Positions 538 to 34,259 of a DNA stretch of 64,000 bases are shown in pieces. The DNA is taken from NCBI RefSeq assembly GCF_000226095.1, contig NC_016475.1, positions 3,534,001-3,598,000 on the forward strand. The letters are read 5' to 3'. How positions within the stretch are numbered: the first letter of the stretch is position 1; each line of letters opens with the position of its first letter. The translations under genes and the position numbers were made by a program. The notes under the pieces were generated by a model, which saw only the letters and a list, made by a program, of their open reading frames with translations, had not been told where the DNA came from and did no database searches. This stretch comes from Thermothelomyces thermophilus ATCC 42464 (Eukaryota; Ascomycota; Sordariomycetes; Sordariales; Chaetomiaceae).

Positions 538-3500
538 TCACAGATCCAACCACCAGGGCTTGCGCTCAAAGTTGTCAAAGAATTCCTGCACGGGCGGGCT
601 ATGTCTGCCGAGTGTGCGCAGCGTCTCCTCCTCGATCGTGCCGGGGACCATGAAGTGGTACACATGCACCTTCTTGGTCTGGCCGGTACGGATACACCGG
701 CCCTTGGCCTGTCGGACAGTCCTGACCTGGTGTTCTTCATCCTGGTGCACGTAAGGGCTGGCAAAGATTACACGAGTAGCAATCGTCAGATTACTCCCGG
801 CGCTCGTCTCGCTGTCCATGTCGAGCAGCAAGATCCGACCCGCCTTTCCGATCTTGAATGCCTCGAGTTTGCGGGCGATGTCGTCGTCCTTCGCGGCAGA
901 GAGGTCGAGGACCCGGAGGTCAGCCCTGTTAAACGCCGCCGCTAGCGAGCTGATCAGCCGGCGGTACTGGGCAAAGACGACGATATATTCGTCGGCCGGG
1001 AACTGCCTCACGAGCTCGACGACGTGGTCGGCCTTGTCACGAGGCCCAGCCTGAGACGGCGTCGGGATGTGGGAGCACCGGATCACCGGCCTCTTGCGAA
1101 TGAAGGCCGGGCAACCTCTGACGGGACAGTAGAATCCCGCAGTGGATCTGCATTCACAGCACAGGAGGTGTCCGCAAGCTACTACCAGAAACGATGCCGT
1201 CGCTGATGGCAGCAGATTCTGACAGCCGCAGCACGCGTGGGTTTGAATGACGCCGTCCTTGTCCAGAGCATTGGCCGCCTGGGAGTACCGGGGGATGAAC
1301 TTGGTTTCCAGCATGGTTGCCCTGAGGTCCTCGACAGTTTTGGCAAGGTGCACCATGGTGCGCTTCAACTCCTCGTTGACAGCCTCCGCCTGCTTACTGA
1401 CATCCTCCACGGTGCACATGGTCGCCGCCTCAAAGTCCCGATGCCTGTCTGGTGGGGCCCGGCCGTCGCGGTAGTTCTCACAGGTGGCGAGACCGGCCCT
1501 GTGCCGCCGGAGCTTTTCCTTGAGGTCCTCCGTGGCGGCATTCGGGGCAAACTTTACATTCACCTCCGTCAAAATCTCGACGAGAGAAGACCTGGAAGCT
1601 CCGGAGGCGCAGTCTTCGTCCACGTGGTCTGTCTCGGAGGCATCCAGCCTTGTCGTATTCAACTTCTCCACCCGGGCGCAACTGCGGACGAGGTGCCTGA
1701 TCTCGTCCCCAGTGAGACTATCGATGACGCGCTTGTCCACCTCGAAGAGCTCCCTTATATCTGGTGGAATAGACCGCCGAGCTTCCGGAGCTAGATGTGC
1801 CCCCGTCAGGGCTAGTACGGGGAAGCTCACACTGAAAGGAGCCGTACGGGGGTCGATCTTGTACTTCAGCCAGCAAAGGTCTTCAGCAAGCAGGCGGAGC
1901 TGGTCTTCGGTAAGTCTGTCTAGCGTGGACTCTGTGACAGCGAAGAAGTCCAGCCAGGTGTACAGTGCCTTGTCGATGTTGTAACCTTCCTTCCAGTCGC
2001 TGCAGAAGTGCGGTCGAAGGGACTGCATTATGTCTGAGGCAGAGTGGGGTGGGGCCCCTTGCGGCGGGATCTGTTGATGGGCAACAATAGAGGCTTCGCG
2101 CAGGAACACGTCAATGCCGCCAAACGGCTCCAGGCTTCCATCCCCGAGAAGAGCGTCGTTCATGTTACTGCACAAGGCTTCCACCCGCGCCAGGCTATCC
2201 TTGATCGACGTGCCTGGCTGAAGGGCCAACCCTTCTTCCGAGCCAGCCCTCGAGCCGAATACCCGTAGTATCCAGCGCCGGAGCCACATCATCTTGTCCC
2301 AAAGAAACTTCATCTGGCAACCAAGCCTAGCGCTTCGTTCCTCCAGGGCCTGGGTTAGGTCGTTGACCGAGCTCACATGCTTGCCGAGGCCGCAGGCAAG
2401 GAGGCCGAGGAGCATCTTAGCCGCGGCCGAACCGTCTTTGCCAAGCAGGTCGGCGCCCTTCAGGGCGACCTCGCGCCGGGCGTGCTCTGGGAGGGCGGTG
2501 TAGTCGAAATCTGCGTCGAGGACTTCCTGAGTGAGCAGATGGTATCGAACCGAATCCGGCTCCGTCATGTCAACGGGCACGACGTGTTCCTCGGACTCGA
2601 TATCCACCTCGGCGTCCAGAGCGTTGGCGCGAAAGTAGGCGGCCACAAACGTCTCGGCGTGGGCGTGGCGCTCTCGAGCCAGCGTGACCGACTTTACCGG
2701 TGAACAGAACTTATGGAACTGCTCGCTCTTCGACATGGGCGCGAGCTCCGGGCCCTTGGTGACCGCGGGGAGGCCGGGCGTAATTCGCGGCTCGGGCCTG
2801 GCGACGTGCACGCCAAAGGCGGCGGAGATCCTGCAAACCTGCTCCAGCGCGAAGAGCTTTGGAGTCCCCGAGAGCAGCCACTTAGTGTTGGCCACAGCAT
2901 GAGCAACAAACAGGCGGATGTTGTCGTCGTCGTCGTAGGAGCACTCGTCCCAGACAACCCTGGCGAAGCTGCAGTTGTGAAGGCAGGAGATGGCCCACGG
3001 ACCTCTCGCTTTCGAGTTCCTTTTAACCTTGGCAGCCTCGCTCGCCGCCGCTTCCACGGGGTCCGAACTGCTTCGCTTTTTGCCCGAGCCGGCATCGCGC
3101 TGCTCCGTGCACAGGGTAATGTCGCCCAGTCCCTCCTTGAAACCGACTGCGCCCAAGTCGTTTCCGGGGCCGCCTACGGTAGTGTCAAGTCCGGCGGCAT
3201 CGACTGTATCCCTCGCTTTCTTCTTGTAGTACTGGCGATCGATTTCGGGAACCTGTTTCATAACCAGGGCGTCAATCTCGGCCTTTCGCCTCCTCCTCAG
3301 TCCGGGCACGAGTTTCTCCTCGATCGTCTCCATGAGCTGGTCATACGGGATATTGGCGTCGCGGCCGGAAAGGTAGTATGCCGTAAGGACCCTGTAAGCG
3401 CGCAGCGCCTCGCGATACCAGGCCTCGAGGGTCCTCCCGGAGAGTCCCGCTGGGAAGCTGTCATCCGGACCCGAGACCGTTTCCAGCCGCTCTAGAAATG

Positions 3501-6500
3501 CCTTGCCAAAGACGGCACTGCTGACAATAATAAACTCGGCTTCCTGCAGTTGCTGCATCAAGCAATCTCCGTAGAACGCCGCTACCGTCTTGATCACGAG
3601 CACCTTGGGCCTGGTCAGACCGAGGAACTTTGCAGCTTCGCTCTCCCATTGGGCCGTGATGTGCTTGGGCACCACAACAAGAGTTGCCGAAAGGTGGCAG
3701 AAGAAAGACTTGACTTTTTGTTCCGGTGAGGGCAGGTTGTCCTGGAGCTGCCCAAACAGGCTGGAGAGTTCCTCAGACCAGACGGCGTCGACCTTGTCTG
3801 CGCGCTCGGCGACGGACTCAGTCGTGTCAAACTCGCGCATGTGGTCGCACACCGCTAGTGTGACCACCGTCTTCCCATAGCCCACCTCATGGGCGACAAC
3901 GCCGCCACGGGAGCAGTAAGGAAAGCGGTTGGTCCACTCGGCCTTGCCGAGAACGCGCAGGTTGAGCGGTGCGACCACTTCCTCCTCGACTTCGCGCTTA
4001 ACAAAGTCGAGGGGCACGCGCTCACGCTGCAGCATCCAGTTGACGGCTTCCCTCTGACTCGGCCTGAGCCGGTACTGCCCCGGGCCCATCTTCCGTGCCT
4101 TGGTCATAGTCCTCCGGAATCTCGGGGGATCGGCGTCGGGAAGCTCGAAATCGCGCGCGAGGTCGATGCCAGTCGTGTTCGCTGCGCTGCAGGGCCGGAC
4201 GGAGTCGATAAATGGGCCGAAGTCGGCAGTCGAGCCGGGTGTGTAATCGAGCGTCACCGTGAAGGACGTGACTGCGCCCGAGTCCACGGCCGTCCGACCA
4301 CGCGCTGCAGTGTGGTGCGCCTGCAACAAGTGCGCGAGGGCCCTCGAGGCGAGTGTCTTGGGCTGCAACAGGAGCCTCATGTCCAGGGTCAAGAAGCCGT
4401 TACTATCAGGTCGGATATGGGCGGCGACTGCCACCGCCCTAGGGAGGTCCTGGTAGTGCCGTTCGAAGGTCGCGGCTTCGTCGGGATCTTCAATGACGAC
4501 CTTTGTCGTCCTCGAACTGTCGTCACCCGTTGCCGGCAACTTCTTTCTACTAGGTCTCTCACTGGGTGCGTTTCCTTTGCTTCCCCCTCTCGCCTTCTTC
4601 TCCCGCGACACCTCTGAGGTCTTGACCCCGGCCCTCTTCGGGTCTTTCCTCGCGTAGACGGCGATCTTGGGCGGGGTCACGGAGCAAACCCGACAGCGGG
4701 CGACAGGGACCCATGACCCGTCGAGGTGCGGAGCCAACGCGAGAGATTCCGGCCGTCTCGACCAGCGGACCTCGCTCGAGGCGAAAGAGACCATCCGCAA
4801 GAACGTGTCTAACCCGGTTGGCGGGACGACGTAGAAACTAGTGTCCGACCGGGGCGTACCACACCTGGATGCCGACAGCGGGAATCCGCGGAAGGTGGCG
4901 GAAACGGCGGCAAGGACGGCCATCTGAGCGACAGGAGCTTGCCCGTCCGCGTGGCAAGGCGCCTGCTGAATAGCTTCGGCCGGACCCCAGTGAACCCGGA
5001 CGGGGTTGTAAGGTTCGGCGGTGCCGGAATCGGAGCATGTGGGCTCGGGAGGCCAGGACCAGTAGCCGGGCCAGAAGACGCTCATGGGCCTCTCCTGGGT
5101 CTGGTGATCAAGTTTCCAAGAGCGCGCAGGCCTGGCATGGAGTAAGACCGGGCGATACTCGTGGGGCTCCATCCTCCGCATCGTCTCAGTCCAGATAAAA
5201 TGGTCATCGTCCGGGTCGCGGAGCCTTGCCGACTCCCACATCAGGAAGACCCTGCCATCCGCGGTGACTGCGGGTTGCTTGACGTGCAGCCGACTGCCGG
5301 CGGTGCCGCACCCGGGATGGTGAGTGTATGTGCCGCACACCCTGGCCTCCACCAATCTCTTCCAGTGCTGCAGTGACGGGTCCGGCCCGAGATCGTGTCC
5401 GCCAGCAAATGACAGCCTGTCGAAGCGGAGCTGGCCGTCCTGGGCCTCGGCAAACCCGAGCTCCAAGTCGATACGGGTTGGAACCCATAGAGACCAGTGC
5501 GGAGCAGAGATGTCGCCAGAGAGGACCTGTCCCCGCGCGATAGGCTGGTCGAGGTCGAAGCACTCGGAGAGCTCCACGCGGCGGTGGTGCCAGGGCGCGA
5601 CGTAGATGTACCAACAGCAGGCCGAGTCAGCAGAGAAAACTAGCCGGGCGATGCTGTCGGCCTTCTTGTAGCATACGGTCACGGCCTCGGTGACCTTAAT
5701 CTCGTCCAGAAAGAACACAGCATCCTTCTTGTTAAGAATGTCGCGGACAACAGAGCGGTACAAGTCCCCCTTGACCGAGCCGAGGGCGGTGTGGACGACG
5801 GCTTCCGGCACGGGCAGCATGAGAGCGTTGGGCAGGACGTCGGCGAGCCGAACCTTGCCCTGTTCGGCGGAGTACCGAGAGCCCGTGACCACCCGGGCGA
5901 CGAAGCGATGCACCGGGTTTCCGCGACAGGCGGAGCAGGCTGTCGTGCCGCAATCAGCGCAGGCGAGCACCTCGGCGATCGGTGCGGGACAGGAGCACAG
6001 GCGCATCATCCTCTTCGCGATGCCGAGCAGCATTTGGGCGTCGAAGACGATGGAGCGGTTCCGGCCACGCTCCAGTGATTCGCCCGGTTCGGGAAACTCC
6101 AGGTACAGGCCGGGCTTCGGTCGTGCCGAGGGTACCTGGTCAAGAAGGCCCGTGGCCGCGTTTGTCTCAAGGACGGCGAGCAAGGCAGCGAGGGTGACGG
6201 CGCCGACCACGGTGACGGTCATGGCGTTGCCGGCCAGATCGCGCAGCTGCGCTTGGGATTCGGTGGAGACGACCAGGTCGTCGACGGGGAGGCCCTGCAG
6301 GGCGAGAGTCTCGAACCCCGTGATGGGGCGCATCAGGTCGGTCACTATGGGCATCCCAGAGGGCGTGATGCAGCCGACGACGCCGAGATGGCTCCTCACG
6401 CGAGCCCTGCCGCCGTTGACCAAGTCGTTGCGGTCGACGTTCTGGCTCACGTCGATCATGCAGGTCTTGTAGCCCAGATCGACGCTCTCGTTGCGCAGGG

Positions 6501-8206
6501 CGGCGAAGGCAATGTCCATGAAGTCGGCCACTCTGGCCACCTGGCCGTCCCAGAACTGCATCCAGGAATGTGAGGGGTACGCGGCGAAAATGTGTCGGCT
6601 GTTTCGCATGGCTTTGAGGCTGAAGGGATTGTCGTCCCGGCGTATGCCGTGCCTCTGGCGCACGTCGGCATGGCGGAGCGAGCAGAGAGCCCACTCGGCG
6701 TTGGGCGAGGACCTGTTCTTCATGTCGGCCCTGGCTTGGATGGTAGCCGGGTCGTCGGCCGGGCGGAGGAAGACCGAGACTGGTGCCGAGGCCGGCCGCT
6801 GGCAGCTGGGAATCCTCCGTTTCCATCCCCTGACAATCTCGCCGGCGTTCCTCGCGCCGATGCCGGCGGCATCGACGGCGACCAGATAGCCGCGCTGACG
6901 TGTCTGTGGCAAGTAGAAATCCTTGCTGTCGAGCCTGACAAAGTCGGCCACGTAGCAGATCTTGGGGAAGATCTGCTCCGTGTACATGTCCCACGGCGCG
7001 TTGTAGACGTTCTCCAAGATGACAAGTTTTGGTCGGATGACCGTGATGAGCTTAATGGCCGCGAAGAAAGTTCGTGCCGATTCGCCGCCCGACGACAGGA
7101 GAGCGAGCTCCCGGAGAGCCTCGTCGAGATCGTCAACAAACGTTTGATCGAGAAGGATGGGTGACTGGTTCCCCTCTCCGCCATCACCATCACCACAGCC
7201 ATCGACCTCCCCGCCCTCTGGTGCATCGCTGGTCGTCCGCTTTCCCGAGCCCTGTTTCTTGGTCGCTCGTCTCTTGCCCTCCTTCGGTTGTTGTTGTTTA
7301 AGATGGCGGTCCAGTGCCGGCACGCGCCCAGACGGCTTGTTCTGATTCATGTTTGAGTAATCGACACAAGAGCAACCGGCGAACAAGATGTCGACCTTCG
7401 AAGCTGGAATCTCGGCCTTGGAGCCACTGGCGGTGGTCCTGTGTTCATGTCAGCGCCCAGTCCGGTTGGCTCGCGCCCCATTGTGTGAGGTTGGATGGGC
7501 GAGCTTACGCCTTTCCTGTCAACGCTGTGCTCGCCAGCTCAACGACGTCGCGGAAGATAAGTGTGCCGGGAGGGAGGTTGCGCCGAATGAAGCCCTGCTT
7601 GAAGGGTTCAATCTCGCAGCTGAAGAGGTGCTGGAATTCAAACCCGGCACCAAAACCGTGAGTCACGAGAGCTTCCTGAATGAGGCTCAGAGCGAAAATC
7701 GGCGCGTCTGTACCGGAGCAGAGAGTCGCTACATTCAAGCGGACGGGTGATTCTTTCAGGCTAACAGGTTCGACCCTCGCAACCATGTCCTCGAACATCT
7801 CGCGAACATCGGAAACGGGAGGCAAGCTGCTGTCGAGTCCGGTTTTGACTCTCCTATCTGGCTTACCGGGTGCGTCGCCGGCCACATGGTCGACATCCGC
7901 GGCGCCGTGAGCATGGAAGCCGCCCAACTTCTCGTCGCTGTGCGACGAACCGGTGTTACTGTCAGTAGTGCCGAAGGCAGCGAGCAAACTTGGGCCAGAT
8001 GCTTTCCGCCTCTTGGTGGAATGAGCAAGATGTTCTCCGTTACAACTATTGAGGTCGGGTTCATTGTCGTCGGTAGCATCGCTCGCGACGCGCTTGCGGT
8101 TCCCAGCAGCGGCGGGTGCGGCGAGCTGCTGCCTGGAGGGAAACGAAGCATGAGTGCCGAGCCCATCGGCCACATGACCGGAAACTCCTCCCTTCTTGGG
8201 AGGCAT
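538..8206 (-). CDS. DNMT5: DNMT5-type C5 DNA methyltransferase / RING / SNF2 ATPase fusion
   Basis: Two exons, complement(7509..8206) and complement(538..7438), flank a 70-nt intron (GTAAGC donor, CTGAC branch, ACAG acceptor) whose removal gives 2,532 residues. N-terminal methyltransferase motifs: I (VATLCSGTD, ~159-167), IV (AGCSCVDYS, ~253-261, likely catalytic C257), VI (ENV, ~375), VIII (QTRQRGY, ~411), then LQGLP and GNAM (~613 and ~636). A Cys-rich patch lies at ~705-735. SNF2 ATPase: Walker A HEVGYGKT (~1417), DECS box (~1729), a RING (~2300-2350) inserted before the C-terminal helicase lobe, and RCIRTGQ motif VI (~2482). This order matches DNMT5, an ATP-dependent CG maintenance methyltransferase described in Cryptococcus. 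Differences: motif IV has Ser-Cys instead of Pro-Cys, a charged low-complexity insert (~265-325) follows it, and I see no chromodomain in the first ~150 residues. Start context is AACATGC. Family assignment is firm; activity is inferred. Confidence 0.93.
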
Positions 8207-11142: not shown

Positions 11143-12728
11143 ATCAAGGGTTGAGGACTGAGAAGGCTAGCACGTACTCCTTGTGTGGAGTGCTTCGTGA
11201 GTAAACCCCTCGAAGAGGGACCTTCGAGTTGTCTTCTTGAACAGAAGAGTTAAATAATGGGTTAGGGTTGTGTGCAACATTCCAGCATGCATGCTTTTCA
11301 ACTGGTCAGATCAATTGCGAAATAACTTCGAAGTATTTTTTTTGTAGGCGACTCGTCAATTGCTCACGGAGACTTCCGTCCAAAGAAGTGACAGGGATGA
11401 GCAGCCAACCCCTGCAAAGCTGTTGAGCAGCGAAGGGCAAGACCCCTCGCTTCTTGACATGACAAGGTGCTTTCGGCTGTTGGGCGCGGCGTTGCAGGAA
11501 GATGCGGGGCCAAATGCCGTGTAACCTGATCGGAACTGATACCAAACCATCTCCTCTCCTACGCCAGTTACTGGTGTGTAGTGATGTGTGCAGTCAGGAA
11601 AGTACTGATCTCATTCTCCATTTTCCGCCATATGGCCACGCATCTCCGCGCAGCTCTCCCGGGTCTGCTGCCCTCGAAGAGCTACTTAGGATCGGCCCCA
11701 GAAAGATGGCGACGCCCACACTAGTGTGCGGACGTAATTGACTGGGAAGGAATGTGCGTGCACGTACGCGCACTAACTTACGGGTAAGGTGGGCCCCGGG
11801 CAAGCAGTTCTCGGTCCCTCGCCGCCGCGCCGCCCGAGCTGGGGTAGGTTCGTTACTTTAGCACCGCAACCAAGGCACCTCGCTAATTAATAATAATAAT
11901 CCCGTACGGAGTACACTGCACACTTACATAACTAATACTTGTTCGTCTCGTTGCTTGTTGGTCAGCGCCCTGCAGCGCCTGGCAGCTGGTTGCTGCGATC
12001 TCCCGGACGATCTGTTGGCGGTCTTCCCGGCTTTTGCCCTCTCGCTCGTCTGGCTCCAATTTCGCTTTTGCGTCCGCGGGCTATCCCACCCTCGTCGATC
12101 CCCCAGGCTGGATCGGCGCCGCTCGGCATCGGAAAACCCATTGCTCATCTGGCTCCCCTGGGACGCCGCCGTATGATGCAGAACTCCGACTTCTCCCCGC
12201 CCCGCAACGCTGCCCACGACGCCGACCAAGGGACGAAGTCGTAGTACGAAGGACTTCGTTAGCAGCATCTGCCACGCCCGCGACTCTTCTCGAACTTCAC
12301 TGGTCGCAAAGCTACAACGAACACCCGGCTTTTTTGTCTGGCGCCTTTCGACGCCCACCTTTTACCCTAGCGCCGCATAACTGATAGCACACTCATCGTC
12401 GCGTTCTCGACTGCTCGACTCCGCGCACCGACCCATTGTTCGCTGTCTGTTAATCTGTCACCCACCCGTCTTCCGCTTGCTATGGTTGCCCAGCGGTGGC
12501 TGTGTGGGATTTTGGACAATCGAGTGGGATCGTGAACCGTGGCCAAGCGGGTTTGACCACCCGAAAGGAGCGACGAGACAGAGCTCGCGGATACGGCAGC
12601 GCGCATATGTGCCGTCTTGTGGCCTCCATCCCCTCTACGGGTCATTGTCCCTCTACTGGCCGCCGCCGCAGTCCTGCCATCTGCGCATGCCTGGAGAACG
12701 AAGGCTGACGAGTCCGCTCCCCGTCGCC
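11143..12728. other. Intergenic spacer and RasGAP leader
   Basis: No supported gene. It includes an A/T tract with TAA repeats (11885-11900), one copy of TACGGAGTA (11905-11913), and a long GC-rich leader before the RasGAP. That leader contains several out-of-frame ATGs, which may act as upstream ORFs if transcription starts near 12.0 kb. Confidence 0.4.
11905..11913 (+). repeat. Recurrent 9-mer TACGGAGTA
   Basis: Exact copy, extended to GTACGGAGTAC. It is one of seven copies in the window on either strand (also 18808, 33022, 40510, 52328, 53516, 61074), all outside coding sequence. Confidence 0.7.
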
Positions 12729-15700
12729 ATGGACGGGAGATCCTACTCCCAAGGGAGCAGTCCCCATGGCGTGATCGCTCCTCCTTTGTCCGAGAGGCCT
12801 GGGCGCACGTCCGTACTTCCTCCGCTCTCCGAAGTGCCATCGCCACGCGACACAGAGAGACCCTCGGCCAGTACTCTGCGGGGTGCCTTGCGACAAACAG
12901 TGAGGGCGGTAACTCCCGAGCCGGCCGAGGCCTCCCTCGATGGGCTGGACGGTGCTGCAGGCGACCCATCACGGGTTCCCCGCGGTTTCGGCTCCATGTC
13001 GCCGCAAACGTCGCCAAGGACCATACCCGCAAACAACGCCAACGCCAATGCCAACTTGCCGAGTAGGCGACAGGGAGTCGTGTTCCAGGACTCGTTTTCC
13101 AGCGCCATCGAGGGTACCTCAGCGAGCCCACCTCTCCGATCGGCCTCGATCCGGCCGAGAACGCACACGATGGACGGCGCATTTCGCCAACAGCTTGCCC
13201 CGGCCCTTGAGACGCGCAATCGGATGGGCTCATTTTCATCAGCAACTTCTCTCACCGTGACCGACGACCTGAAGATCCCGTCGTTCCAGTCTCCCATCGA
13301 CTCGTATAGGCATGTCGATCCCCAGCAGCATTCGGCGCTGCCTTCCTCCAAAGACAAGAAGGCCTCCGGAGCCAGGAGCCGCCTGACGAAGCGGCCGACG
13401 TCGCGTCCAAGCTCGCCTCTCTCGTCTCTCCCACCATCTGTTGACTCCCTTCCTCTCCCGATCCCGACGACGGATGCCAACAAGGTCCTGCTTCTCATGA
13501 AGAACCTCTGCGGCCGCATGCGGGGTGAGGTCGAGTATCAGAAGGAAGCCGGCGGCCCCTGGGTGAGCGGCATGTGCTACATCGAAGAGGAGAGAGGCAG
13601 TTTGATGTTTGACTCGGGCGACAGCGGCTCCTTCCATATCGCTCTCATTCCCGATCTTCGAGGCTGTCGCGTGGTTCCGGTGGAGCGTCCCGACAGGGAT
13701 GCTCACTGCCTCGAAGTCGCCAATACTCAGCTTGGCATCACGCTCTTCCTACGGCCGGTGGTGGCTGAGGAGCTGGAACCATGGCTGGCTGCATTGCTTT
13801 GCTGGCAGCAGCTACGGCCTGCTGCTGCGGCGAAACCTCAGACCGCTCGTTCCGGCAATGTTGCCGGCCCGGCCTCCAGGACAGAGATGAAATGCCGCGT
13901 TTCGTCGCCCGGCCTTCGAGAACCGGCCGTCATCAAAGTCGGCAAGGTCATGCTCTGGGACAAGGGTGCGGCCGTATCGCCCCGCGCTATCGTCAGGCGG
14001 CCATCCACCCGCGATCTACGATCTTCCCAGACATGTTGGAGGAGAGTGTCGTGTATCCTGCACGACAATGGCGAGCTCAAGATCATGACGGAAAACGACG
14101 TGGCTGTTTTGTCTGTGATTGAGCTCTCGCAGCTCGCAAGGTCTGCCATCCAGCAGCTCGACAGGTCCGTCTTGGACGAGGATTACTGCCTGGCCATCTT
14201 TCCCAGCTACTCATCGACATCGACCCAGCTCTCCATCTTCAGGCCTGTATACATCGCCCTGGAGAGCAGGGTGTTGTTCGAGGTCTGGTTTGTGTTGTTG
14301 CGCGCCTTCACGACTCCGGATCTTTATACCTTGGACATCGAAAAAGGAGGGAGAGTTTCAGAATTGACCGATCCCCAGCAAGAACCGACAGGAGAGGTAT
14401 TCCGGGTGGAGAAGACAATCTTCCTCAGAGTCACCGAAGCCAGGTTACGGGGCATGACTTGGACTGCGGAAGGAGGTCACGGAGATCGTCAAGGAAGAGG
14501 GTCACACTCTGACCAGCTGGTTGGCAACTATCTGGCCGAAGTGATTCTTGATGGAGAAGTCCGCGCAAGAACTTCGACCAAGATGGACACCAAATACCCG
14601 TTCTGGCGCGAGGACTGTGTGTTTACGGACCTACCAGTCTCTCCACCCGACCTTTCGGTTCTCCTAAAGCGGGTAGAGGACAATACCGAGAGCTTCGCCC
14701 ATCAAATCCAAGCAACTCTGGGTCTAGCGAGGACGGCTAACATGACAGAAGTCCTCTGCGGCTCTGTCGATATACCCCTCCATCAACTCGACAATGGGAA
14801 GGATCACGAACAATGGCTCCAAATCTGCGACGATAAGCAGCAACCCATCGGTTCCATGCTTGTCAAGGTTCACCACGAAGAACTCGTGGTCCTTCTCCAG
14901 CAAAACTATCAGCCGCTCTCAGATCTCCTTCACCGTTTCAGCCCCGGCCTCATAGCCCAGATCACCGAGGCGCTCCCTGGCAGTTTGCGTCGGGTCGCAG
15001 AGATTTTTGTCAACATCTTCCAGGCCTCAGGGAAGGCCAATGAATGGTTCATGAACATGGTTGAGGAAGAAATTGATGGGATCGGAGCCAAAACACCAAT
15101 GAAGAAGGGACGGTTCAGCGGGCGCCTCAAGTCCGACGACTCGATCGAGTCAAATGTTGACAGAGAACAGGTTGTGCGCGACCTGAGCAGGTCACTCCAG
15201 GGCGAGGCCAATCTGCTCTTCAGGGGCAATTCGCTGCTGACGCAAGCCTTGGAGTTCCACATGCGCCGCCTCGGAAGGGAGTACTTGAGCGAGACGCTTG
15301 CGGACAGGATCCTCGAGATCAACGAGAGCGACTGTAGTTGCGAAGTGGACCCGAGCAAGCTGCAGCACGGCGAGGACATTCAGCAGCATTGGGATCAACT
15401 GATTCAGTTCACCACTGATATCTGGAACAGCATCGTCACGTCCGCTAGCCGTCTGCCTCCCGAGTTGAGGCATATTCTCAAGTACATTCGGGCTGTTGCC
15501 GAGGATCGTTACGGCGACTTCCTTCGCACCGTCACGTACACGTCTGTCTCGGGATTCCTCTTCCTCCGCTTTCTCTGCCCGGCTATCCTGAACCCGAAGC
15601 TGTTTGGGCTGTTGCGTGACCACCCTCGGCCCCGCGCCCAGAGGACCCTCACCCTCATCGCCAAGTCCCTGCAAGCACTCGCCAATCTGACAACCATCGG

Positions 15701-16649
15701 CAAAAAGGAGACGTGGATGCAGCCTATGAATCGGTTCCTCACGGCGCAGAGACAATCCTTCAAGGACTTCCTTGACGATGTGTGCGCCATTCCGGCAGAG
15801 CGTACCGCAGCCCCGCCGCCGGCATCCTACTCCACACCCACCACCATCATGGGCCGTCTGTCGCCGATGGCGCGCGAGGGGTTCCCCTCGCTTCCTTACC
15901 TCATCGATCAGGGGCGCTGCTTCGCCGCGCTCGTAAAACTCTGGGCGGACGCCCACCCAGTTTCGGCCAGCGAATCCCAAATCTACGAAGGCGACCTGCT
16001 TACCTTTCACAACCTCTGCATCGACCTCCACCAGCGTGCAATGGACTGCCTTGCCGGTATCGAGGCGCTTCGGTCTGCAGACACGGCCAGCCAACCGGCA
16101 GAGGACCAGGCGGCGCTGTCCGATGTGATGGATCGCATCAGCATCGGCGATATGCTCAATCTGTCCTCCTACGGCCCCGATAGCACGGCAGTCTGGGCCG
16201 AGAGCGAAGCCCGCGCCCCCGGGTCATCGGGCAGCGAGATGGACGCGTCCGGCGCGAGCCCTCCATTTGGGACGATCAGCATCAGCAGGGACACCCGACA
16301 CGGCAGCTTCAGCCGCGACTTGAGTTCGAATTCTCTGCGCCAGATGCTGCGGAGTAGCGAGGCGTGCCCCAATCCGGGGATCAACCTGGGTAGCGATGGC
16401 GGGAACGGCGGTGGGACTGTGCGTAGTTTGCGCAACGGAATCCACCCGCGGAAGTTTTTCAGCGGCTTCATTCGCAAGACCCGGACGACGTTGCCCGACT
16501 TGCCAGTGCCACCAGAACCACCGGCGTGTGCAAATCTACGGGAAGGCGAAGGTGACCGAGATGGGGACGCTGATACCGCCAAAGACGGCAGGGGCTGGGA
16601 GAGGACCAAGGAGAGAGAAGAGAGGGAAAAGGAGGGGGAACTTGAATAA
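12729..16649 (+). CDS. Ras-family GTPase-activating protein, Bud2-like
   Basis: One continuous reading frame gives 1,306 residues from the ATG at 12729, chosen for its GCCATGG context. The frame is open upstream and another ATG at 12687 would add 14 residues. A Ser/Pro-rich N-terminus (~1-240) is followed by a likely PH-like region (~255-370), a C2-like segment around the KMDTKYPFWREDCVF block (~615-640) and the RasGAP domain. The GAP domain has the arginine-finger loop LFRGNSLLTQ (R832) and the FLRFLCPAILNP signature (~945-958). PH-C2-GAP order and size fit fungal Bud2/Cla2 proteins, which stimulate GTP hydrolysis by Rsr1/Rap-type GTPases in polarity control; IRA-type GAPs are much longer. 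The C-terminus is charged and repetitive. Domain call is firm; Bud2 orthology is inferred. Confidence 0.88.
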   Translation: MDGRSYSQGSSPHGVIAPPLSERPGRTSVLPPLSEVPSPRDTERPSASTLRGALRQTVRAVTPEPAEASLDGLDGAAGDPSRVPRGFGSMSPQTSPRTIPANNANANANLPSRRQGVVFQDSFSSAIEGTSASPPLRSASIRPRTHTMDGAFRQQLAPALETRNRMGSFSSATSLTVTDDLKIPSFQSPIDSYRHVDPQQHSALPSSKDKKASGARSRLTKRPTSRPSSPLSSLPPSVDSLPLPIPTTDANKVLLLMKNLCGRMRGEVEYQKEAGGPWVSGMCYIEEERGSLMFDSGDSGSFHIALIPDLRGCRVVPVERPDRDAHCLEVANTQLGITLFLRPVVAEELEPWLAALLCWQQLRPAAAAKPQTARSGNVAGPASRTEMKCRVSSPGLREPAVIKVGKVMLWDKGAAVSPRAIVRRPSTRDLRSSQTCWRRVSCILHDNGELKIMTENDVAVLSVIELSQLARSAIQQLDRSVLDEDYCLAIFPSYSSTSTQLSIFRPVYIALESRVLFEVWFVLLRAFTTPDLYTLDIEKGGRVSELTDPQQEPTGEVFRVEKTIFLRVTEARLRGMTWTAEGGHGDRQGRGSHSDQLVGNYLAEVILDGEVRARTSTKMDTKYPFWREDCVFTDLPVSPPDLSVLLKRVEDNTESFAHQIQATLGLARTANMTEVLCGSVDIPLHQLDNGKDHEQWLQICDDKQQPIGSMLVKVHHEELVVLLQQNYQPLSDLLHRFSPGLIAQITEALPGSLRRVAEIFVNIFQASGKANEWFMNMVEEEIDGIGAKTPMKKGRFSGRLKSDDSIESNVDREQVVRDLSRSLQGEANLLFRGNSLLTQALEFHMRRLGREYLSETLADRILEINESDCSCEVDPSKLQHGEDIQQHWDQLIQFTTDIWNSIVTSASRLPPELRHILKYIRAVAEDRYGDFLRTVTYTSVSGFLFLRFLCPAILNPKLFGLLRDHPRPRAQRTLTLIAKSLQALANLTTIGKKETWMQPMNRFLTAQRQSFKDFLDDVCAIPAERTAAPPPASYSTPTTIMGRLSPMAREGFPSLPYLIDQGRCFAALVKLWADAHPVSASESQIYEGDLLTFHNLCIDLHQRAMDCLAGIEALRSADTASQPAEDQAALSDVMDRISIGDMLNLSSYGPDSTAVWAESEARAPGSSGSEMDASGASPPFGTISISRDTRHGSFSRDLSSNSLRQMLRSSEACPNPGINLGSDGGNGGGTVRSLRNGIHPRKFFSGFIRKTRTTLPDLPVPPEPPACANLREGEGDRDGDADTAKDGRGWERTKEREEREKEGELE

Positions 16650-20747: not shown

Positions 20748-22804
20748 ATGGCTGCGCGAAAACTGCAACAAGAAGTCGACAAGTGCTTCAAGAAGGTGGC
20801 CGAGGGTGTCGCCGAATTCGAAGCCATCTACGAAAAGATTGAACAGTCGTCAAACCAGGCGCAAAAGGAGAAGCTAGAAGACCAACTCAAGCGCGAGATT
20901 AAGAAGTTGCAGAGGCTCCGCGACCAGATCAAAACATGGGCCGCGAGCAATGACATCAAGGACAAGGCCCCGCTCCTGGAGCAGCGCCGGCTGATCGAGA
21001 CGGTTTGTATTCCAACTGGCACCGTCTTCGCATGTCCAGCAGACTTACCCCTCTCTATAGCAAATGGAAAAGTTCAAAGCTGTTGAGAAAGCCATGAAGA
21101 CCAAGGCTTACTCAAAGGAAGGACTATCTGCCGCCGCCAAGCTGGATCCTAAGGAGCAGGCCAAACTGGACGCGGGCGAGTTCCTCGGCAGCATGGTCGA
21201 TGAGCTGGAGCAACAGATCGAGACTCTTGAGGCCGAGAGCGAATCAATACAGGCAACCATGAAGAAGGGGAAAGGCCACGCGGCGAAGGCGGAGCGCATC
21301 GCCGAAATCGAGCGCATCATCGAACGGCACAAGTGGCACCAGGGGAAACTCGAGTTGATCCGGCGCTCGCTTGAAAACGGGGGAGTTGACGCCGAGCAGG
21401 TTCAGGATCTTGGGGAGAATATCAAGTACTACGTGTCGGACGGCATGAACGAGGACTTCATGGAGGACGAAACCATGTACGACGACCTGAACCTGCAAGA
21501 CGAGGAGGACCAGTACGGGATGAACCTGGACAACGACAAGGTATCCTCACAAGATACCCAGTCGATACAAGAAGACGCAAACCAGGAGGCCGAGACGAAG
21601 CCCAGCGGCCCGTCAGGAAAACAACGGAGCGCGGTTGATGCAGTGGCAGCGTCGGCTGTGCGGCGGCCATCGACGCAGCTCAAGTCGCCCCTCCCTACCC
21701 TTGCGACCGTGCACAGTACTCCGCTACCGACCCTCAATACTGGCTCTTCGGCCACTGCGGGCATGAAGCCGGCCACGGCGCCGACGAGGCCCGCAGGTGA
21801 GGGCTTGAAGTATGCCAGCGCTGCAGCGGCAGCTGCCAACAACGTCGGCATTGCCCCGTTACCACCACCGCCCCCAGCACCATCCAGTGTCAGCGGGGCC
21901 TCAATACCGGCACAAGTAAGGACAAGTGCGGCAAACTCTCCCAGCGTCCCGTCCATACAGCCGGCCTCACAGGAGAAGGCGTCCAACGCGAACGTGGCGC
22001 CGTCAAGCGGGGCGACAGCGGCAAACCAGTCGCACAAGACGCCGGCGAAAGGAAAGGCGGTGGCGCAGGCAAGCCCCGCCGATACTGCCGACGGGGCAAA
22101 AGGTACCAACGATACCTTGTAGCGTTCTGTCCAGTAGATGTGCTAATGTGATGTTGTACAGGGGCGCAAGCAAACGGCGCGGCCAATGGCATTCGACCAA
22201 TCGAGGAGACCGAAGAGGAAGAAGAGTCGATCTACCACCTCCCTGCCTCATTGCAAGATCTTGTCGAGTCATTCGAAGTCACGAAGAAGCGACCTGCGCC
22301 GATCAACGCGCCCGCAACCCAGAGGATGCAGGCTGCCTCCGAGGCGAACAAGCCTGGTATTTTGGACTCCGAGCCACCACGAAACTATCAGCCGGATGTG
22401 AAGTTTCATTCTCACACGCGCTATCCGCAAGAACCGCTGTCTATCTTTGACGATCCTCGGCTGTATAGCAGGATCGACCCGGACACGCTCTTCTACGTAT
22501 TCTACTACAAGCAGGGCACTTACCAGCAGTACCTCGCCGCTCGGGCGTTGAAAGATCAGAGCTGGAGGTTCCACAAGCAGTACCAAACGTGGTTCCAGAG
22601 ACACGAGGAGCCCAAATCGATAACAGAGGAGTTTGAGCAGGGGACATATCGCTTCTTCGACTATGAGAGCACATGGTACGACCAGATCTTTGGGGAAAAA
22701 ATGTTCCGCACATGTGATCATTCGATGGCTAACCTTGAAGCAGGATGAATCGGAGGAAAGCTGACTTTAAGTTCGCGTATAAATTCCTCGAGGATGAGGT
22801 TTAG
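20748..22804 (+). CDS. NOT5: CCR4-NOT complex subunit NOT3/NOT5
   Basis: Four exons, 20748..21002, 21061..22102, 22162..22675 and 22744..22804, give 623 residues; introns are 58, 59 and 68 nt. The N-terminus begins [20 protein letters not shown], the conserved start of the Not3/5 coiled coil (~1-235). A low-complexity Ala/Pro/Ser/Gln linker follows (~245-400). The C-terminal NOT box (~440-623) includes the [19 protein letters not shown] block and, across the last intron, [24 protein letters not shown]3/5 scaffolds the deadenylase complex and, in yeast, senses ribosomes with an empty E site. The final 61-nt exon supplies the conserved C-terminus and is easily missed, since the unspliced frame continues a further ~20 codons. 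Confidence 0.95.
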
Positions 22805-33173: not shown

Positions 33174-34259
33174 ATGTTCCGCTCGCTCGTCCTAAAAATG
33201 GCCGAAAACGCAGCCAAGCGGCTCAAGACCGACAACGGCGTAGTCGCCATCGGCACGCACAACGGCCACTTCCACGCCGACGAGGCTCTAGCCGTCTACA
33301 TGCTGCGCACCCACGTCCCTACCTACTCGGGCGCCAAGCTCGTGCGCACGCGCGACCCCAAGTTGCTCGACGAGTGCCACACGGTTGTTGACGTCGGCGG
33401 CGAGTACGACGCCGCGCGCAACCGTTTCGACCACCACCAGCGCAGCTTTGGCACCTCCTTTCCCGGCCGCCAGACCAAGCTGAGCAGCGCGGGGCTGGTG
33501 TACATGCACTTTGGTCGCGAGGTTATTGCCCGGCGCCTGGGGCAGGCCGAAGATAGCGAGCAGGTTGACTTGGTGTGGCGCAAGATCTACGAGAGCTTCA
33601 TTGAGGCGTTGGACGCGCATGACAACGGTATCAGCGTCTACGACCCGGCCGCGCTCGCCGCGGCCGGCCTACAGAAGAAGTTCTCGGACGGCGGGTTCAC
33701 TCTGGGCGCGATGGTGAGTCGGCTGAACCCCAACTGGAATGATCCCGTCCCCGAGGACCCCGCCGCGGCGCAAGAGGCGGAGGACAAGAGGTTCGAGCTG
33801 GCTAGCCAGCGCATCGGCGAGGAGTTTGACCGCGATCTGGACTATTTCACAAAAGCATGGCTCCCCGCGCGGGAGGTGGTCGCCGAGGCATTTGCTGCGC
33901 GTCAGGAGCACGACAGCCAGGGCCGCATCATGGTGCTGAAGCGCCAGTCGGCGCCGTGGAAGGATCACCTCTACAGTCTGGAGGAGGGGCAACCCGAGGG
34001 CGGCAAGGTCCTGTACGTGCTGTATCCGGAAAAGCCGACCCCGGATTCCAAGTGGAGGATCCAGTGTGTACCAGTCGCCAAGGACTCGTTCGAGAGCAGG
34101 AAACCGTTGCCTGAGGCCTGGAGGGGCTTCCGCGATGAGGAGCTGGATGGGATCTGTGGAGTGAGCGGCTCCATCTTCGTGCACGCTTCTGGTTTCATCG
34201 GAGGCAACAAGACATACGAGGGCGTGCTCGCCATGGCGAAAAAGGCGCTCGACCTCTGA
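33174..34259 (+). CDS. MYG1: MYG1-family exonuclease (UPF0160)
   Basis: An intronless frame of 361 residues. Family motifs are present: IGTHNGHFHADEALAVYML near the N-terminus (residues ~24-42), VDVGGEYD and the FDHHQRSF 'DHH' block. MYG1 proteins are 3'-5' RNA exonucleases of the DHH type reported in nucleolus and mitochondria. The first ATG (33174) adds eight residues (MFRSLVLK) before a second ATG at 33198, which has the better context (AAAATGG) and matches the usual start MAENAAK. Leaky scanning could give two forms, but the 8-residue extension is short for a targeting signal. Length fits the family. Confidence 0.94.
   Translation: MFRSLVLKMAENAAKRLKTDNGVVAIGTHNGHFHADEALAVYMLRTHVPTYSGAKLVRTRDPKLLDECHTVVDVGGEYDAARNRFDHHQRSFGTSFPGRQTKLSSAGLVYMHFGREVIARRLGQAEDSEQVDLVWRKIYESFIEALDAHDNGISVYDPAALAAAGLQKKFSDGGFTLGAMVSRLNPNWNDPVPEDPAAAQEAEDKRFELASQRIGEEFDRDLDYFTKAWLPAREVVAEAFAARQEHDSQGRIMVLKRQSAPWKDHLYSLEEGQPEGGKVLYVLYPEKPTPDSKWRIQCVPVAKDSFESRKPLPEAWRGFRDEELDGICGVSGSIFVHASGFIGGNKTYEGVLAMAKKALDL

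What the first reader, a model, noticed from the sequence alone, without database searches (positions are those of the whole stretch)
538..8206. DNMT5-type maintenance methyltransferase in a Sordariales-like genome
The 2,532-residue protein joins complete C5-methyltransferase motifs to a RING-bearing SNF2 ATPase. In Cryptococcus, DNMT5 is an ATP-dependent, maintenance-only CG methylase. DNMT5 is patchily distributed in fungi, and Neurospora is described as having DIM-2 and RID instead. If active, this species could carry self-propagating CG methylation alongside or instead of RIP-linked methylation.
Basis: partly seen in the sequence, partly recalled or inferred. Interest (0 to 1): 0.85.

Follow-up and report, generated by a model that had tools for sequence, protein, structure and literature searches.

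The report
DNMT5 methyltransferase gene in Thermothelomyces
This fungus carries an intact gene for a known DNA-methylating enzyme, DNMT5, next to the two enzymes it shares with Neurospora; that trio is common in related fungi, so the gene is real but ordinary, and whether it methylates DNA here is untested.

Summary
A two-exon gene at 538-8206 (minus strand) encodes 2,532 residues with C5-methyltransferase motifs, two zinc clusters and an SNF2 ATPase. The genome is Thermothelomyces thermophilus ATCC 42464 (Sordariales). The protein is a DNMT5 orthologue: its closest solved structure is Cryptococcus DNMT5, and it trees with DNMT5, away from the genome's own RID-like and DIM-2 proteins. The catalytic residues I examined are kept.

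Neurospora did lose DNMT5, as did most Sordariomycetes. But one study calls DIM-2 + RID + DNMT5 the commonest ascomycete set, many Chaetomiaceae and Podospora-like fungi have DNMT5, and two such cases were listed in 2019. CG-only methylation persisting without DIM-2 is published for Zymoseptoria.

I looked for a CG-methylation footprint in 40 retrotransposon copies. Near-identical copies without RIP marks show no CpG excess. RIP-mutated copies change CpA most and CpG second, and CpG changes follow the strand bias of CpA changes, so they look like RIP products rather than decay of symmetric CG methylation. The strand support is moderate. A missing footprint does not exclude methylation, because methylated CGs in Zymoseptoria mutate little. 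Activity remains untested.

The parts
7509..8206 (-). exon 1: poorly conserved N-terminus, conserved box (7781-7828), MTase motifs I (7700-7735) and II
   Evidence: ORF and splice sites; residues 1-155 are 62% and 54% identical to T. fergusii and T. myriococcoides, against 89% and 87% in the MTase
7439..7508 (-). predicted intron, 70 nt, GT..AG with branch-like GCTGAC
   Evidence: sequence; removing it gives one open frame
538..7438 (-). exon 2: rest of MTase, zinc clusters, SNF2 ATPase, stop
6193..7080 (-). PF00145 match, MTase motifs VI to X
7345..7389 (-). motif IV ILFAGCSCVDYSNMN with the catalytic Cys (SCVD form)
   Evidence: SCVD[YF]S in 36 of 36 aligned DNMT5 proteins
6988..7026 (-). 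motif VI, LVILENVYNAPWD (ENV)
   Evidence: ENV in 36 of 36
6877..6927 (-). motif VIII, QTRQR
6202..6318 (-). motifs IX and X
5908..5997 (-). Cys-rich zinc cluster behind the MTase (lines up with Cryptococcus DNMT5)
   Evidence: invariant Cys/His columns in 10 proteins; alignment to 7r76
3589..4056 (-). SNF2 lobe 1 (PF00176 match), Walker A GYGKT at 3850-3906
2854..2967 (-). SNF2 motifs II (DECS) and III (SGTP)
1096..1233 (-). RING-type Cys/His cluster between the SNF2 lobes
   Evidence: no Pfam RING hit
649..987 (-). SNF2 lobe 2, motifs IV to VI with arginine fingers (QAKGRCIRTGQ)

Best explanation
An intact, vertically inherited DNMT5 orthologue. By analogy with Cryptococcus DNMT5 it most likely uses SNF2 ATP hydrolysis to recognise hemimethylated CpG and restore symmetric methylation after replication. 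In this species it is probably a minor, CG-only maintenance activity behind DIM-2, which would be directed by H3K9me3 and HP1. Shown here: gene structure, motifs, phylogeny, and presence of DIM-2, a RID-like gene and candidate HP1 and DIM-5 genes. Inferred: enzymatic activity, hemimethyl specificity, the minor role, and recruitment, which cannot use a Cryptococcus-type chromodomain because none is detected.
For: Best solved match 7r76, Cryptococcus 'Rad8'/DNMT5: 344 bits over MTase and SNF2, against 24 bits for the next hit; 142 bits for the C-terminal half alone. The window protein has every MTase and SNF2 motif examined; catalytic SCVD, ENV, Walker A GKT and motif II DE in 36 of 36 aligned proteins. 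Tree of 38 rows: 36 DNMT5 rows apart from own RID and DIM-2, SH-aLRT 100; the window protein sits with Thermothelomyces and Corynascus. MTase 89% and SNF2 lobe 1 84% identical to T. fergusii against 62% for the N-terminus, consistent with constraint on the catalytic parts. DIM-2, RID-like, chromo-shadow and Pre-SET genes present. Published: 5mC only at CG in Zymoseptoria without functional dim2, ascribed to Dnmt5 (PMC8016269, passages); a small Dnmt5 contribution in Verticillium (PMC8091789, passages).
Against: No expression or methylation data were available here. No chromodomain and no detected SRA partner, although the SRA search had no working control. No CpG excess among changes in 20 young retrotransposon copies. 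One Verticillium study found reductions in the dnmt5 mutant comparable between contexts, with some CHG preference, and little effect of dim2 (PMC10638132, passages).
Confidence: 0.62

Rival explanations
1. The protein is a DNMT5 orthologue kept for another job, such as chromatin remodelling, repair or a role in the sexual cycle, with little or no methylation in vivo.
For: Kramer et al. speculate that Dnmt5 acts under specific conditions or in processes other than methylation (PMC8091789, abstract). Podospora keeps DNMT5 although its RIP targets were reported unmethylated (PMC6709928, passages).
Against: The catalytic Cys motif and ENV are kept in 36 of 36 aligned proteins, which a pure remodeller would not need.
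Confidence: 0.25
2. DNMT5 maintains substantial self-propagating CG methylation genome-wide in this species.
For: Complete enzyme. Two other ascomycetes with DNMT1 or DNMT5 besides RID and Dim-2 (Tuber melanosporum, Pseudogymnoascus destructans) have mostly CG methylation (PMC7862722, passages). CpG is the second most mutated context in RIP-mutated copies: 823 of 8,447 sites, against CpT 424 of 8,198 and CpC 215 of 5,503.
Against: CpG changes follow the strand bias of CpA changes (Pearson r 0.59, Spearman 0.48 over 20 copies; 1% of 200 uncoupled simulations reach 0.59), so they look like part of RIP. Young copies show no CpG excess. CpG observed/expected is 0.97 in the window.
Confidence: 0.1
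3. Not DNMT5: a chance or false fusion of an unrelated methyltransferase and a RAD5-like helicase.
For: Some databases name relatives 'DNA repair protein RAD5'.
Against: One uninterrupted exon joins most of the MTase to the SNF2 part; PF00145 with PF00176 recurs in Chaetomiaceae, Podospora, basidiomycetes, chytrids and algae; the tree places it in DNMT5.
Confidence: 0.01

Closest known systems
Cryptococcus neoformans DNMT5 (PDB 7r76, 7r77, 7r78, 7t02, named Rad8)
   Same: MTase, zinc cluster, SNF2 with RING between the lobes; same motif order
   Different: No N-terminal chromodomain found here. [quoted passage not shown]
Podospora anserina PaDnmt5 (Pa_4_2960) and Thielavia terrestris Dnmt5 (XP_003650845.1)
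   Same: Same order, same family, listed in print in 2019 (PMC6709928, passages). P0018 (Thermothielavioides terrestris) is 53% and P0047 (Podospora comata) 36% identical to exon 2 of this protein; P. anserina itself was not compared
   Different: Sequence divergence; I saw no functional study of either
Verticillium dahliae and Zymoseptoria tritici Dnmt5
   Same: Ascomycetes with DIM-2, RID and DNMT5; Verticillium Dnmt5 also lacks the N-terminal chromo-type domain (PMC8091789, PMC8016269, passages)
   Different: Mutants or natural dim2 losses have been studied there; not here

Membership tests
DNMT5 | C5-MTase domain with motifs I, II, IV, VI, VIII, IX, X in order | tested here: met
DNMT5 | Motif IV of the SCVD[YF]S form | tested here: met
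   36 of 36 aligned proteins; own RID-like protein reads PPCQ and own DIM-2 SPCP
DNMT5 | C-terminal SNF2 ATPase with Walker A, DExx and arginine fingers | tested here: met
   no PF00271 hit for lobe 2 at E 1, but its motifs are present
DNMT5 | Zinc cluster behind the MTase and RING within SNF2 | tested here: met
   invariant Cys/His columns in 10 proteins and alignment to 7r76; no Pfam RING hit; several distant rows lack part of the RING Cys pattern
DNMT5 | Phylogenetic place within DNMT5 | tested here: met
   36 DNMT5 rows against own RID and DIM-2, SH-aLRT 100; quick tree, only two very long outgroup branches, 14 of 35 inner branches open
DNMT5 | ATP-dependent methylation of hemimethylated CpG only | not testable with these tools
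   needs enzyme assays
Cryptococcus-type DNMT5 pathway | N-terminal chromodomain reading H3K9me | tested here: not met
   no Pfam hit in exon 1; significant N-terminal match with Kwoniella and Cryptococcus-genus DNMT5 is a 23-residue stretch only. Not family-defining: PF00385 is noted for 1 of 86 listed relatives and 2 of 120 listed
Cryptococcus-type DNMT5 pathway | UHRF1-like SRA partner | tested here: inconclusive
   no PF02182 match, but no control genome rang either
Neurospora-type DIM-2/RID system | DIM-2, RID, HP1 and DIM-5 genes present | tested here: met
   DIM-2: solved fungal relative at about 1,200 bits, BAH domain. RID: PF00145 and motif reading only. HP1 and DIM-5: one chromo-shadow and one Pre-SET match only

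The most novel reading that the evidence does not exclude
DNMT5, or the CG marks it keeps, adds a CpG arm to RIP. In this genome only three loci were found to match the C5-MTase family (RID-like, DIM-2, DNMT5), CpG is the clear second RIP context, and CpG and CpA changes lean to the same strand in the same copies. Removing dnmt5 would then abolish the CpG share of RIP mutations but not the CpA share.
Probability: 0.05. Interest if true: 0.65.

Novelty: new member of a known kind. Interest (0 to 1): 0.2.

Why it matters
Modest. It places DNMT5, DIM-2 and a RID-like gene together in a thermophile of the Sordariales that is used in industry and can be transformed (recalled, not from a call), in the same order as Neurospora, which lost DNMT5. 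That allows a clean comparison of what DNMT5 adds where DIM-2 is present, a question the Verticillium study left open (PMC8091789, abstract).

Tried and rejected

SRA (PF02182) and DNMT1-RFD (PF12047) searches gave nothing, but no control rang, so absence is not shown.

The uncorrected strand tests (partial r 0.13-0.48 for CpG at four window sizes, p 0.0005-0.02; none significant for CpT or CpC) could be biased: a CpG hit on one strand makes a CpA that RIP can hit on the other. I therefore rely on the corrected fit with simulation. Its null is broad (sd 0.285), and the simple form of the correction predicts about 565 CG>TA doublets (my sum of the printed column) where 315 were seen, so the model is rough and the support moderate.

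The raw CpG rate (1,480 of 9,962) counts CG>TA doublets; the strict count is 823 of 8,447.

The high CpG observed/expected of degraded copies (1.09-1.27 in 20 of 20) is not used as evidence against CpG mutation, because the ratio rises as RIP removes C and G elsewhere.

The idea that a missing CpG footprint disproves CG methylation was dropped, because Zymoseptoria CG sites are methylated but mutate little (PMC8016269, passages).

Structure prediction was not run: the MTase is split by the intron and the sequence match to a solved DNMT5 is already strong. For Neurospora I rely on the papers: no Neurospora or Sordaria protein is among the 86 or the 120 shown of 455, but 335 rows were not shown and both searches scored capped candidates.
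Full report
OBSERVATION. Two open frames, 8206..7505 and 7386..538, are joined by a predicted 70-nt intron, 7508..7439, with canonical ends and a branch-like GCTGAC. The spliced product has 2,532 residues. The window is part of a 38.74-Mb, 7-contig genome. Exon 2 is 100% identical to MYCTH_2307313 of Thermothelomyces thermophilus ATCC 42464, on a contig of 4,710,208 bases, the length of contig C4. The NCBI model lacks the first 136 residues. It starts inside SLPPVSDVREMFEDMV, where a 23-residue BLAST match with Kwoniella and Cryptococcus-genus DNMT5 appears to lie, so the longer model is favoured.

WHAT IT IS. Pfam finds PF00145 and PF00176. Among solved structures the best match is Cryptococcus DNMT5, deposited as DNA repair protein Rad8 (7r76), with 344 bits; the next hits, DDM1 and RAD5, have 24 and 22 bits. 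The C-terminal half alone gives 142 bits to 7r76. I aligned 36 proteins, the window protein and 35 chosen by hand from the 86. The window protein has every motif examined. Motif IV SCVD[YF]S, motif VI ENV, the Walker A GKT and the SNF2 motif II DE are present in 36 of 36. The two arginines of motif VI are present in 35 of 36; P0085 has a gap there. Motifs I and II are missing from P0049, motif I is partly cut in P0083, and motif X is broken in P0018; these may be gene-model or contig-end effects, which I did not check. Several distant rows lack part of the RING Cys pattern. In a second alignment of 10 proteins the Cys/His of both zinc clusters are mostly invariant.

TREE. In a quick IQ-TREE of the MTase region (38 rows) all 36 DNMT5 rows separate from the genome's own RID-like and DIM-2 proteins with SH-aLRT 100. 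The window protein groups with T. fergusii, T. myriococcoides and Corynascus (99), in a Chaetomiaceae set of 14 (99), with Podospora-like fungi next to it (83). This broadly follows the species, so vertical descent is the simplest reading. The outgroup branches are very long, 14 of 35 inner branches are open, and the Madurella row falls outside the Chaetomiaceae set.

DISTRIBUTION. In one search, 50 of 86 listed relatives score 1,099 bits or more, and the next scores 384. The named ones among the 50 are all genera of Sordariales, mostly Chaetomiaceae and Podospora-like fungi (my reading of the genus names). In the profile search 120 of 455 proteins were shown, from many ascomycetes, basidiomycetes and chytrids. 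PF00271 is noted for only a few of the Sordariales rows but for most others, so lobe 2 is divergent in this group although its motifs are kept.

THE REST OF THE SYSTEM. Three loci in the genome were found to match PF00145: DNMT5; a 726-codon frame with PPCQ and EET in place of ENV, RID-like (RID enzymes have a non-canonical EQT triad, PMC6709928 passage); and a frame with SPCP, ENV and a BAH domain that matches the solved fungal methyltransferase 9bap/9baq at about 1,200 bits, that is DIM-2 (the entries say DNA (cytosine-5-)-methyltransferase, the name DIM-2 is my reading). One chromo-shadow match, with a partial chromodomain beside it (C4:1780688), and one Pre-SET match are candidates for HP1 and DIM-5. 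No SRA match was found, without a working control.

FOOTPRINT TEST. From 149 chromodomain matches I took by hand 20 copies with long open frames and 20 degraded copies. Two of the open frames carry reverse transcriptase, RNase H, integrase and chromodomain, that is a Ty3/Gypsy-like retrotransposon. The open ones form two families with mean pairwise differences of 0.8% and 0.07%. In the degraded copies TpA is raised and CpA lowered, as RIP does. Strict C-to-T rates in degraded copies, against the nearest of three young copies, are: CpA 2,877 of 8,378, CpG 823 of 8,447, CpT 424 of 8,198, CpC 215 of 5,503. Per copy, CpG rates rise with CpA rates (r 0.89, intercept near zero), and the strand ratio of CpG changes follows that of CpA changes after correction for secondary hits (Pearson 0.59, Spearman 0.48; 1% of 200 uncoupled simulations reach 0.59). 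Decay of symmetric CG methylation should not follow a strand, so CpG is best read as the second target of RIP itself; the correction model is rough. Among young copies, with each copy in turn as yardstick, CpG sites change no more than CpC or CpT: family A CpG 2.4%, CpC 2.6%, CpT 2.6%, CpA 1.4%; family B 0.15-0.22% in all contexts. This gives no support to substantial mutagenic CG methylation of young copies. It cannot exclude methylation, since Zymoseptoria CG sites are preferentially methylated yet not mutated at high rates (PMC8016269, passages). The counts are small and the copies were not drawn at random.

LITERATURE (passages seen through term searches unless stated). Kramer et al. [quoted passage not shown] A second Verticillium study (PMC10638132) saw slight reductions in the dnmt5 mutant and, unlike the first, little effect of dim2. 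PMC12543289 says Dnmt5 was lost in most Sordariomycetes including N. crassa and most likely kept in P. anserina and L. maculans, both with weaker RIP, whereas T. thermophila is in a class with more than 10% of the genome RIP-affected (PMC7882544). PMC7862722 calls RID and Dim-2 the main ascomycete enzymes and reports mostly CG methylation in Tuber and Pseudogymnoascus, which also have DNMT1 or DNMT5. PMC6709928 lists Thielavia terrestris and Podospora DNMT5. PMC4352252 ties CpG signatures to Masc2-type DNMT1, though its own table has Tuber with a CpG signature and no Masc2 found; it dealt with Dnmt1-type enzymes. The Cryptococcus structure and evolution papers were not held; their content is known to me through the 2026 review (PMC13297926) and from recall. 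Searches for a T. thermophilus methylome or DNMT5 study showed none in what was listed: 15 of 10,948 papers, 4 of 4, 2 of 2, 10 of 26. This does not show that none exists.

VERDICT. The gene is real and correctly named, but ordinary for its group: another member of a known family. The open question, what DNMT5 does beside DIM-2, is general and already stated in print; this species is one more place to test it.

Noticed in passing
L010-L029 (own genome; e.g. G000:C1:6986633-6990282): 20 retrotransposon copies in two families (mean pairwise difference 0.8% and 0.07%) carry no RIP marks in a genome with many RIP-mutated copies: a recent burst that escaped RIP, or RIP not used recently.
   Followed up: partly
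L030-L049: RIP in these 20 copies changes CpG as a clear second context after CpA, ahead of CpT and CpC, with strand coupling between CpG and CpA changes.
   Followed up: yes
window 7781-8206: The public gene model MYCTH_2307313 starts at residue 137 and cuts into a conserved box in front of motif I.
   Followed up: yes
proteins P0050, P0123, P0032, P0033, P0036: Some relatives are listed with only the MTase domain or only the SNF2 domain (Mycothermus VTJ49, Cercophora sp., Humicola, C. globosum, Chaetomium sp.): split gene models or real losses of one half.
   Followed up: no
window 12477-16649, 21064-22122, 33174-34259: Neighbouring frames are housekeeping-like: RasGAP, Not3 of CCR4-NOT, MYG1 family.
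   Followed up: no
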